Source: Deltaproteobacteria bacterium
GTDB taxonomy: Bacteria > Desulfobacterota > Syntrophia > Syntrophales > UBA2210
Reading direction: 5' to 3'
Assembly: GCA_019314085.1 (NCBI GenBank)
Contig: JAFCZZ010000140.1
Coordinates: 1-6,457, forward strand
Length of the DNA stretch: 6,457 nt
Shown here piece by piece: positions 95 through 5,463 of this stretch (the first letter of the stretch is position 1; every line of letters begins with the position of its first letter). The notes under the pieces were generated by a model that saw nothing but the letters and a program-made list of their open reading frames with translations, did not search any database and had not been told where the DNA came from. Made by a program: the position numbers and the translations under genes.

Positions 95-125
95 GAAAAC
101 AAGAGCACCCCGAGATCGAGGTGCT
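95..125 (-). terminator. intrinsic terminator closing the leftward operon
   Basis: On the minus strand, bases 125 to 104 form a 9-bp stem (AGCACCTCG pairing with CGGGGTGCT, one G-U pair) with a 4-nt AUCU loop. It is followed at once by a T-rich tail (CTTGTTTTC, 103-95). It begins 21 nt after the stop codon of the last gene (147-386). Stem, short loop and U-tract together fit a Rho-independent terminator, and this is the only good one seen downstream of the gene series. Confidence 0.8.
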
Positions 126-146: not shown

Positions 147-386
147 TCAGGCTAGGCGGCCTTTGAGCTCCGCCACCTCGACCCTGAGTTCGCCTATGGC
201 CTCCTTCAGCTCATGGATGGTATCGTTGAGGTTCCCCATCGTTCCCCGCATGGCGGAAATGTCCCTGGACATCTGGAGGGTGACGAGGATCATAATATCG
301 TTGCCCCTGACCTTCCCCCCGGTCATCAGCCTCTGAAGCGCTTTATCCGCCAGGGGCGTGAGTATTGCGATAAGGCTCTCTTCCAT
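147..386 (-). CDS. small coiled-coil protein, 79 aa, last gene of the operon
   Basis: No family is recognised. Residues 4-19 are a mildly hydrophobic helix (LIAILTPLADKALQRL), followed by a GGKVRGND turn. The C-terminal half from about residue 40 is a predicted coiled coil, with hydrophobic residues at heptad-like spacing and many Glu and Lys (motif IHELKEAIGELRVEVAELKG). The ATG directly follows the stop of the 36-aa gene (TAGATG), and a GGGAG ribosome site lies 6 nt upstream inside that gene's last codons, so translation is probably coupled. The terminator follows 21 nt after the stop. Small coiled-coil proteins at the end of phage structural operons can be lysis accessories (XhlA-like) or virion-associated proteins. 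No convincing transmembrane segment is seen at the C-terminus where XhlA would have one, so the function is left open. Confidence 0.8.
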   Translation of the reverse strand: MEESLIAILTPLADKALQRLMTGGKVRGNDIMILVTLQMSRDISAMRGTMGNLNDTIHELKEAIGELRVEVAELKGRLA

Positions 387-497
387 CTATTTCTCCCTTT
401 CCAGGCACCTCTCGCAATGATCCAGGATGCGCTCAAGCAAACGGATGAGAGCTGCCATCTGCTGAAGAAGGTCTCTTATCGGGCATTCCTCTTTCAT
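387..497 (-). CDS. 36-aa Cys-containing helical microprotein
   Basis: This is a very short gene, supported mainly by its context. The ATG at 497 has GGGAG 4 nt upstream. Its stop TAG (387-389) abuts the ATG of the next gene. Its start overlaps as ATGA the stop codon that the upstream gene would have without the 28-bp duplication. The product starts MKEECPIRDLL and is one amphipathic helix, with Ile, Leu and Met at positions 7, 10, 11, 14, 17, 18, 20, 21, 24 and 25. Cysteines fall at 5, 28 and 31, the last two as CERC. It could oligomerise as a coiled coil, pair with the following coiled-coil protein, or bind a metal through the CxxC. No family is recognised. With the frameshifted upstream gene now ending at 585, coupling from that gene is probably lost. 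Confidence 0.65.
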   Translation of the reverse strand: MKEECPIRDLLQQMAALIRLLERILDHCERCLEREK

Positions 498-592
498 GTT
501 ACTCCCAGTATGTTCTCTATCGCCCAGCGTGCGTCCTCAACGCCCTGGTCGCCCCTGATGCGGCGGATCTGCTCCAGGAAGTCATCAACCGA
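494..592 (-). pseudogene. detached 3' end of the Cys/Tyr-rich gene (frameshifted remnant)
   Basis: Reading through a single copy of the 28-bp repeat, the Cys/Tyr-rich gene continues from ...SQWGAPI into SVDDFLEQIRRIRGDQ, and ends in ENILGVT at a TGA (494-496). The 32 residues are of ordinary composition and form a plausible charged helix. The TGA overlaps the ATG of the 36-aa gene as ATGA, the kind of junction used in this tight operon. In the present sequence the segment is out of frame and has no start codon of its own. It is therefore best read as the original C-terminus, cut off by the duplication. The observed 226 aa would become 247 aa with one copy removed. Confidence 0.75.
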
Positions 593-1265
593 TATCGGGG
601 CGCCCCACTGGGAGATGTAGTATCGGGGCGCCCCACTGGGAGATGTAGGAATTGATTGGCGAGGCGTGGGCCGTCAGGCATTGGCTGTAGTTGTAGTCAG
701 CGCAGGCAGCCAGCTGGCTCTCGGCGGCAGTGGCCAGCCAAGCGTCCATCTTCTCATCATGCAACTCCTTCAGACGGGCTGCCATCTCCTTCCAGAGATC
801 ATTGGGCCTGGCTGTCAGGTTCGAGATCACAGCTTGGCAGACATCCGTCGGAAGCACTGCATATGGGCGGTAGTACCCGTAGCAAACATATGCTACGCCC
901 ATGTAGTTCCCCGGGTAGTAGAGGTAGGCTGCCAGGTAGGTTCTCCCCAGGGCATACTCATCACCGGGGGCGTACTCCTCAGCCACCTGGTCGGCAGCCT
1001 CCTGATAGGCCCGGTCGCTCTGAGAGGCCATGAAACCGCAGGGGCTTGAGACGACAACACCCCAGGCGGCGCCGTAGCCCGGCTCGGTGCAGTTATAGAC
1101 AGGGAGAGATCTAAAATATTCCAAAGTTGGGTCGAGGTGCTGGTTGCAGAAGACATACTCCAGCACCTGCCTCATCTGTGAGGCATCGAGCATGGCCGGA
1201 GGCGCGAACGGCGCCATCTGGACATTTAACTCCCTAACCTCTCTTGGCTTTAGTGTTATCGCCAT
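585..1265 (-). CDS. Cys- and Tyr-rich protein of unknown function, C-terminus frameshifted
   Basis: The product is 226 aa as read. The start chosen is ATG 1265 (MAITLKPREV), with GGAGG 6 nt upstream. A longer GTG start at 1334 would overlap the previous gene and has no such site. Residues 1-23 closely match the inter-domain strand of the preceding gene (RELNVQMAPFAPP against RELNVQMTPLPPP). The body has seven cysteines (40, 59, 76, 128, 143, 188, 196) and a Tyr-rich stretch at about 98-136 (LAAYLYYPGNYMGVAYVCYG). This suggests a disulphide-bonded extracellular or virion-surface domain. A charged helix at about 157-175 follows. The last 11 residues are an artefact of the 28-bp duplication; the unduplicated form would be 247 aa. 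No family is recognised. Its position after a membrane-anchored beta-sandwich gene suggests the two act together, which is inference. Confidence 0.8.
   Translation of the reverse strand: MAITLKPREVRELNVQMAPFAPPAMLDASQMRQVLEYVFCNQHLDPTLEYFRSLPVYNCTEPGYGAAWGVVVSSPCGFMASQSDRAYQEAADQVAEEYAPGDEYALGRTYLAAYLYYPGNYMGVAYVCYGYYRPYAVLPTDVCQAVISNLTARPNDLWKEMAARLKELHDEKMDAWLATAAESQLAACADYNYSQCLTAHASPINSYISQWGAPILHLPVGRPDIG
593..648 (-). repeat. exact 28-bp tandem duplication (two copies)
   Basis: Bases 593-620 and 621-648 are identical 28-mers joined head to tail. Each holds the perfect 10-bp palindrome GGGGCGCCCC (597-606 and 625-634), which can form a hairpin and favour replication slippage. Because 28 is not a multiple of 3, the extra copy changes the reading frame of the minus-strand gene that crosses it. 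In that gene the repeat encodes first YISQWGAPI, and then, shifted, LHLPVGRPDI before a stop at 585. Confidence 0.97.
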
Positions 1266-1701
1266 CTCAGTCCTCCTATAGGACAAGTGTCTCGTATCCT
1301 TCCTTCTGGAACACCACACGGTAAGTCCCTGCACGAATGTCCGAGATTATGTAGTTGCCACCACTGTCTGTGTAGGCGCTGTAGCCGTCAACCGTCACCA
1401 GCACCCCGGCCACAGGTGCCCCGGTCTCGGCGTCGGTGACTGTCCCAAAGAGCGTAGCTGTTGGCGGCGGCAGCGGTGTCATCTGGACATTCAGCTCCCT
1501 ACTCTCGCCGGGTGATAATGTTACTGGCATCTCTATCTCCTCATATCCCTCTTTTTGGAATATGACATCGTAGGTGCCTGGATGCAAGCCAATAAACTCA
1601 TAGTAGCCGCCGGAATCAGTGACGGTCTGCTGATCATCGACAGTTACCAGCACGTCCACCAGGGGCTCACCTGTAGTGGCCTCGGTGACGATGCCATATA
1701 G
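1201..1701 (-). repeat. two tandem 83-aa domain repeats spanning two genes
   Basis: Copy 1 starts at LYGIVT (residue 37 of the anchored protein, base 1701) and copy 2 at LFGTVT (residue 120, base 1452), a period of 249 nt. Copy 2 runs past the stop at 1276-1278 and resumes in another frame at 1265. There the DNA again matches copy 1: CATCTGGACATT with CTCCCTA on the plus strand occurs at both 1215-1237 and 1480-1502. At the break, copy 2 carries about 15 extra bases including the in-frame TAG, and about 2 fewer bases before the ATG. Confidence 0.8.
1271..1276 (-). promoter_or_regulatory. strong ribosome site setting the start at 1265
   Basis: GGAGGA on the minus strand lies 6 nt before ATG 1265, with its first G being the last base of the upstream gene's TAG (1276-1278). 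It shows that the downstream reading frame is independently translated, despite its protein homology to the upstream gene. It also decides against the longer start at 1334. Confidence 0.8.
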
Positions 1702-5001: not shown

Positions 5002-5463
5002 CTATCTGTGTCCCCAGGCCATCCAGGAGGCGCTGCCAGGGGTGTCGGCGATCCAGGTAAAGCTCTCTGGCCAGACACCGGTGATGCGGGCGTAGCTGAT
5101 GTCAGGCCCGGGGGCCGTTGTCACCACTGGCGTGTCGCCATAGGCTGTGCCGAAGGCAACCGTTGCCTCCACCGAACCTATGGCCACCAGCCGATCCATC
5201 TGGAACAGGGAGTCGAGTTTGGCATCTGTTAGTGTGCCATCCCGTACCTTGGCGCCGGTTACCGCCAGGGTGTCCAGCTTGTCCTCGACAATGGCGGCAT
5301 CACGTATCTTGGTCGTCGTCACTGCCAGGGTGTCCAGCTTGGGGTCTGTCACCGCAGCGTCACGGAGCTTGGCGGTCGTCACCGCCAGGGTGTCGATGTC
5401 GGCCTCCCTGACCTCGGCGTCCAGTATGTTCTCTGACCTTATCCTGCCGTCAAGTATCCTCAT
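5002..5463 (-). CDS. short tail-fibre-like protein with 20-aa repeats and lectin-like tip
   Basis: The product is 153 aa. Residues 1-22 are a degenerate repeat-like start (RILDGRIRSENILDAEVREA). Three 20-residue repeats follow at 23-42, 43-62 and 63-82 (consensus LDTLAVTTxKIRDAAxxxxK), the pattern of a trimeric fibre shaft. Residues about 96-153 resemble the C-terminal receptor-binding domain of phage fibres and H-type lectins: an alternating beta pattern (VEATVAFGTAYGDTPVV), an aromatic FTWIAD, and a closing WMAWG. The likely role is a small trimeric host-binding fibre, shorter than most tail fibres. ATG 5463 has GGAG 7 nt upstream, inside the last codons of the previous gene, whose TAA is 4 nt away. 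The assignment to a fibre is good; the precise fold of the tip is inferred. Confidence 0.82.
   Translation of the reverse strand: MRILDGRIRSENILDAEVREADIDTLAVTTAKLRDAAVTDPKLDTLAVTTTKIRDAAIVEDKLDTLAVTGAKVRDGTLTDAKLDSLFQMDRLVAIGSVEATVAFGTAYGDTPVVTTAPGPDISYARITGVWPESFTWIADTPGSASWMAWGHR
5218..5397 (-). repeat. three 60-nt in-frame repeats in the fibre shaft
   Basis: Three consecutive 60-nt units encode the 20-aa shaft repeats. On the plus strand the phrase GCCAGGGTGTC recurs at 60-nt steps (near 5264, 5324 and 5384). The DNA similarity is high enough for unequal recombination to change copy number, which would lengthen or shorten the fibre shaft without shifting the frame. Confidence 0.9.

What the first reader, a model, noticed from the sequence alone, without database searches (positions are those of the whole stretch)
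593..648. 28-bp tandem duplication breaks a gene; removing one copy restores a perfect ATGA operon junction
Two exact 28-bp copies stand head to tail inside the Cys/Tyr-rich gene. As read, the protein ends 11 residues into the second frame. With one copy, the frame runs on for 32 more sensible residues to a TGA at 494-496, which overlaps the ATG of the next small gene as ATGA. That coincidence is strong evidence that the one-copy form is ancestral. Each copy carries the palindrome GGGGCGCCCC, a known setting for slippage, so the site could be a recent mutation, an on/off switch for a surface protein in a mixed population, or an assembly error.
Basis: partly seen in the sequence, partly recalled or inferred. 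Interest (0 to 1): 0.7.

Follow-up and report, generated by a model that had tools for sequence, protein, structure and literature searches.

The report
Recent 28-base duplication truncates phage-like gene
In a piece of what looks like a bacterial virus, 28 bases stand twice in a row inside a protein gene, which cuts off the end of the protein; a related protein from another contig has the segment once and keeps the end, so this is probably a recent mutation or an assembly error, with an on/off switch possible but unproven.

Summary
Positions 593-620 and 621-648 are identical 28-bp head-to-tail copies. The minus-strand gene (ATG at 1265) stops at 585-587 after 11 residues in a shifted frame; another frame stays open to a TGA at 494-496 that overlaps the next ATG.

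A relative on another contig (P0002, 172 of 204 residues identical) has the segment once and runs into the tail; the window's separately translated tail matches it at 36 of 40 residues. The tail frame has codon usage like the window's other genes. A second relative ends similarly. One copy is most likely ancestral; this rests on two relatives.

The proposed slippage is weakened: the duplication's ends share no bases. Real fixed mutation, mixed-population switch or assembly error cannot be separated without reads.

Verdict: real sequence feature, ordinary kind of event (frameshifting tandem duplication), in a little-sampled modular protein for which Pfam and PHROGs gave no accepted match.

The parts
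593..620 (-). 28-bp unit, second in reading order
621..648 (-). 28-bp unit, first in reading order
585..1265 (-). Cys/Tyr-rich ORF as it stands (226 aa, 7 Cys, 20 Tyr), ending in 11 residues of a shifted frame
   Evidence: the local alignment to P0002 ends before these 11 residues
494..619 (-). conserved C-terminal tail in a different frame, ending in TGA 494-496
   Evidence: 36 of 40 residues identical to P0002; 0.656 log-odds per codon over 29 codons of 497-583
387..497 (-). 36-aa ORF whose ATG overlaps the tail's stop (ATGA), with a GGGAG motif before it
   Evidence: no PHROG or Pfam match at E up to 1
147..386 (-). 79-aa ORF directly after the 36-aa ORF (gap 0)
589..606 (.). overlapping palindromes CCGATATCGG (589-598) and GGGGCGCCCC (597-606) at the left end of the duplication
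1198..1268 (-). 5' end of the gene, a 72% repeat of a stretch of the upstream gene (1463-1533)
104..125 (-). terminator-like hairpin after the last ORF
   Evidence: 2 such sites in 1-2000, shuffles give 1.1 on average

Best explanation
A recent tandem duplication of 28 bp (one more than a multiple of three) near the 3' end of a gene in a phage-like tail or appendage region has shifted its frame. Shown: P0002 has the segment once and the tail; the window's tail DNA is open, codes normally and lies in another frame than the body. Inferred: this allele makes a truncated protein that lacks the 32-residue tail and ends in 11 unrelated residues; its stop lies 87 nt before the next ATG instead of overlapping it, so coupling of translation to the 36-aa and 79-aa ORFs is lost, though the 36-aa ORF has its own GGGAG motif. 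Tandem copies are in general unstable, but a selected switch is not shown. How it formed is inferred: with no bases shared at the ends, simple misalignment between short repeats is less likely; stalling at the overlapping palindromes or joining of broken ends is possible.
For: Exact duplication and frames. P0002 has the segment once and the tail: 172 of 204 body residues and 36 of 40 tail residues identical to window pieces read apart. Tail not distinguishably more diverged than body (Fisher p 0.47; 27 of 31 without the nine residues of the unit). Tail frame scores 0.656 per codon against 0.434 for the gene body, while the other two frames over the same bases are negative with two stops each. 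P0003, with P0002's N-terminus, ends in a similar tail: window tail against P0003 scores 53, reached by 0 of 2000 shuffles (maximum 49); P0002's middle against P0003 scores 30, reached by 682 of 2000.
Against: Only one relative covers the body and the junction and one more the tail; I had no DNA of either. An assembly error would give the same letters, and no reads were available. No shared bases at the ends. The window's protein cluster lists two member sequences on one contig; what the second is was not resolved. The codon-usage yardstick was computed on the same genes it was trained on.
Confidence: 0.65

Rival explanations
1. Assembly artefact: two contig ends sharing a 28-base overlap were joined without merging it, and the real molecule has one copy.
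For: Exactly 2.0 identical copies with no shared bases at the ends, as an unmerged overlap would give; the relative has the segment once. False duplication by assemblers is a documented class (passages of PMC9516828, on vertebrate genomes).
Against: 56 bases fit inside ordinary short reads (general knowledge), so a two-copy stretch is easy to assemble rightly. Assembler, word length and reads of this contig are unknown. Of 18 rows listed by my two searches for such artefacts (8, 10 of 16; one paper is in both), none is about this error in phage contigs by its title.
Confidence: 0.25
2. Selected on/off switch: one-copy and two-copy forms coexist, as in tandem-duplication phase variation of pneumococcal capsule genes.
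For: Same anatomy: a perfect tandem duplication inside a reading frame that breaks it. Reversible sequence duplication in pneumococcal capsule loci is reported (passages of PMC4022640 and PMC4243769).
Against: No evidence of a mixed population; P0002 shows no repeat at this place in its protein; a single one-off mutation looks the same.
Confidence: 0.07
3. Programmed or leaky ribosomal frameshifting makes a long and a short form, helped by the hairpin between the two copies.
For: RNA of 580-680 minus folds at -35.5 kcal/mol, z -2.34, 3 of 200 shuffles as good; the two frames are both open over about 88 nt.
Against: The hairpin follows from duplicating a palindrome; P0002 is one continuous frame.
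Confidence: 0.03

Closest known systems
Tandem-duplication phase variation in pneumococcal capsule genes (type 3 locus; cap8E and tts). Waite et al. 2001 and 2003 were seen only as reference entries, with citing passages in PMC4022640 and PMC4243769
   Same: Sequence duplication within a reading frame that disrupts it
   Different: There it is described as reversible and spontaneous; here no population or reversion data, and the gene is a phage-like one of unknown function
Copy-number phase variation of promoter tandem repeats in M. tuberculosis Erdman (PMC12817950: passages, part of the abstract among them)
   Same: Copy number of tandem units varies, with subpopulations
   Different: Promoter repeats with variants seen in reads; here a coding stretch, two copies, one contig
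Ordinary frameshifting insertions in phage genes (general knowledge)
   Same: Recent, breaks one gene
   Different: The insertion is an exact 28-bp tandem copy

Membership tests
Tandem-duplication phase variation | perfect tandem duplication inside an ORF, length not a multiple of three | tested here: met
   (28 leaves 1 on division by 3)
Tandem-duplication phase variation | one-copy form is the intact form in relatives | tested here: met
   P0002, 1 of 1 relative that covers the junction
Tandem-duplication phase variation | both forms in one population, with reversion | not testable with these tools
   no reads; no genome held for the window
Simple-sequence-repeat contingency locus | array of many short units | tested here: not met
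   two copies of 28 bp only
Programmed ribosomal frameshifting | overlapping frames conserved in relatives | tested here: not met
   P0002 is one continuous frame; one relative only
Assembly duplication artefact | no single read spans both copies | not testable with these tools
   no reads available

The most novel reading that the evidence does not exclude
The duplication is a selected, reversible switch in a phage: virions of one population carry the protein with or without its conserved tail, with a coupled change in the two small downstream genes, by gain and loss of a 28-bp copy at a double palindrome.
Probability: 0.07. Interest if true: 0.6.

Novelty: new member of a known kind. Interest (0 to 1): 0.27.

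Why it matters
If the two-copy form is real and mixed with the one-copy form, it would be a case of tandem-duplication switching in a phage tail-region gene. If fixed, it is a fresh loss allele. If an artefact, it shows that a gene break in a single contig can be recognised from one relative. The protein itself is a little-sampled modular one in which the C-terminal tail is kept while the middle and the N-terminus differ.

Tried and rejected
No relatives of the gene were found in IMG/VR, in GTDB species genomes, in phage records by protein or by DNA (whole window, 64 gene region), or in plasmids (P0002 only). These scans use short patterns or BLAST, and the profile search scored only the 7997 candidates sharing most words. 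The exact 28-mer is absent from IMG/VR. Of the neighbours I searched four: the 218-aa gene found nothing in IMG/VR, GTDB or phages; the 177-aa gene nothing in IMG/VR; the 291-aa gene nothing in IMG/VR and one 20%-coverage match in a Pseudanabaena phage; the 739-aa gene partial N-terminal matches in 3 IMG/VR contigs and 11 Streptomyces phage records. The 126-, 153-, 79- and 36-aa ORFs were not searched in these collections as proteins. In the three IMG/VR loci the best match of P0001-P0003 had E 0.028. AlphaFold2 of P0002 with two sequences was unusable (mean pLDDT 35.4), so no fold search was run. The gene, P0002, P0003 and the tail piece had no PHROG match and no Pfam match above its cut-off; P0003 has weak Pfam matches (NPCBM_assoc E 0.044, 14.4 bits, cut-off 24.4; DUF3261 E 0.67), the tail piece one to DUF4045 (E 0.39). 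P0002 had PDB matches only at E 0.73 and 2.1. Rfam gave nothing on the window. Rejected: chance repeat; tail as decayed or non-coding; restart of translation in the tail frame (no ATG, GTG or TTG there; one ATT and two CTG). Literature on switching by tandem duplication: searches listed 27 rows in all (15, 10, 1, 0, 1, 0; held 28 and 58 papers), some repeated; by title none describes a phage tail-region gene switched so, which is not proof that none exists.

Full report
What is there. The window's length equals that of the contig recorded for its own protein, 6457 bases, so it seems to be a whole contig. The likely genes lie on the minus strand: a 218-aa ORF, a 126-aa ORF that overlaps it, a 153-aa ORF with repeats that matches tail-fibre PHROGs (best E 1.6e-11), a 291-aa ORF, a 739-aa right-handed beta-helix ORF (Pfam E 3.2e-10; PHROG pre-neck appendage E 1.2e-7), a 177-aa ORF with two carboxypeptidase-regulatory-like stretches (Pfam E 2e-30), the Cys/Tyr-rich gene of the finding, a 36-aa ORF and a 79-aa ORF, then a terminator-like hairpin at 104-125. 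This looks like a tail or appendage region of a phage or prophage. No confident capsid or terminase match was seen (weak matches to a head protein, E 0.075, and a head-tail adaptor, E 0.026), so 'phage' is likely and not proven.

The duplication. 593-620 and 621-648 are identical and form the only exact array of at least two copies with unit length 8-199 in the window; about 1.5e-13 are expected for this unit length by base composition. The ends share no base beyond the unit. The left end falls one base from the centre of the palindrome CCGATATCGG, which overlaps GGGGCGCCCC. Ten-base palindromes number 7 against 6.8 expected, so their presence alone says little.

The reading frames. The gene starts at 1265 behind an AGGAGG motif. 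Its frame passes the first copy, is shifted in the second, and stops at 585-587 after 11 residues. The frame that spells YISQWGAPI in the second copy, as the gene's own frame does in the first, goes on to TGA 494-496, which overlaps ATG 495-497. In a codon-usage test trained on six other window ORFs, that tail frame scores 0.656 log-odds per codon over 29 codons, against 0.434 for the gene body. 54 in-frame 28-codon stretches of five of the training ORFs average 0.57 (sd 0.24) and 108 off-frame stretches of 27 codons -0.46 (sd 0.31); this yardstick is in-sample. The other two frames over the same bases score -0.63 and -0.43 with two stops each. Over the duplication itself the gene's frame scores only 0.04 and the others -0.53 and -0.14.

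Relatives. The first protein search returned two proteins among 130 candidates, the window's own included; a profile search added one; a search with that one added none. P0002 (337 aa, 3776-base contig) matches the window's body at 172 of 204 residues, has YISQWGAPI once, and continues; its tail matches the window's separately translated tail at 36 of 40 residues, 27 of 31 without the unit. Body and tail do not differ detectably in conservation (p 0.47; the nine residues of the unit count in both). The tail has not visibly decayed, so the break looks recent relative to the split from P0002. P0003 (223 aa, 15058-base contig) matches P0002 at 73% over 57% of its length, the N-terminal part; its middle shows no similarity to P0002's in a shuffle test (682 of 2000 reach the score), and its end, with RWAIEN, resembles the tail (window tail against P0003: score 53, best of 2000 shuffles 49; P0002's end against P0003: 52, best 48). 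Both relatives keep this end, which suggests a structural or docking role; that is inference from two relatives. Searches of IMG/VR, GTDB genomes, phage and plasmid records found no others. The window's cluster lists two member sequences on one contig, which I could not resolve.

Consequences, inferred. The allele as it stands makes a protein without its tail. Its stop lies 87 nt before the ATG of the 36-aa ORF, so the overlap that would couple translation is lost, although that ORF has its own GGGAG motif. The two palindromes, 18 bases apart, can pair in the mRNA (101 nt, -35.5 kcal/mol, z -2.34, 3 of 200 shuffles as good; as DNA -17.8, z -2.01); this follows from duplicating a palindrome and is only weakly unusual.

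How it arose and what it is. Slippage between short direct repeats would be expected to leave shared bases at the ends (general knowledge); there are none. Stalling at the palindromes or end joining could give the same outcome, and so could an assembler that fails to merge a 28-base overlap. Without reads these cannot be separated. I give 0.65 to a real recent duplication, 0.25 to an assembly error, 0.07 to a selected switch and 0.03 to recoding; these are judgements. The switch reading has a precedent in pneumococcal capsule genes, where reversible sequence duplication is described (passages of PMC4022640 and PMC4243769; the primary papers were not read). Here only the anatomy matches.

Modular ends. 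The stretch 1198-1268, which holds the first part of the gene, is a 72% repeat of 1463-1533 inside the upstream 177-aa gene. In a gapped alignment the gene's TATAGGAGGACTGAGATG, which carries the upstream gene's stop, the ribosome-binding motif and the start, lies over coding TATGAGGAGATAGAGATG. P0002 and P0003 have another N-terminus. The 5' part of this gene seems to have been exchanged or split off from the upstream gene; this is inference.

Noticed in passing
1198-1300 and 1463-1560: The gene's ribosome-binding motif and start codon align with a coding repeat of the upstream carboxypeptidase-regulatory-like gene (72% identity over 71 nt without gaps for 1198-1268; gapped alignment); the N-terminus differs in relatives.
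   Followed up: partly
1528-1542: The aligned coding stretch inside the 177-aa gene carries GAGGAG six bases before an in-frame ATG (minus strand), a possible internal start.
   Followed up: no
5261-5421: About 60-base tandem repeats in the 153-aa tail-fibre-like ORF (72-78% matches).
   Followed up: no
387-497: 36-aa ORF with three cysteines between the tail's stop and the 79-aa ORF; no family match.
   Followed up: partly
P0003 (15058-base contig): Relative that keeps P0002's N-terminus and the RWAIEN end but has a shorter middle without detectable similarity: a sign that the central part is exchanged.
   Followed up: partly
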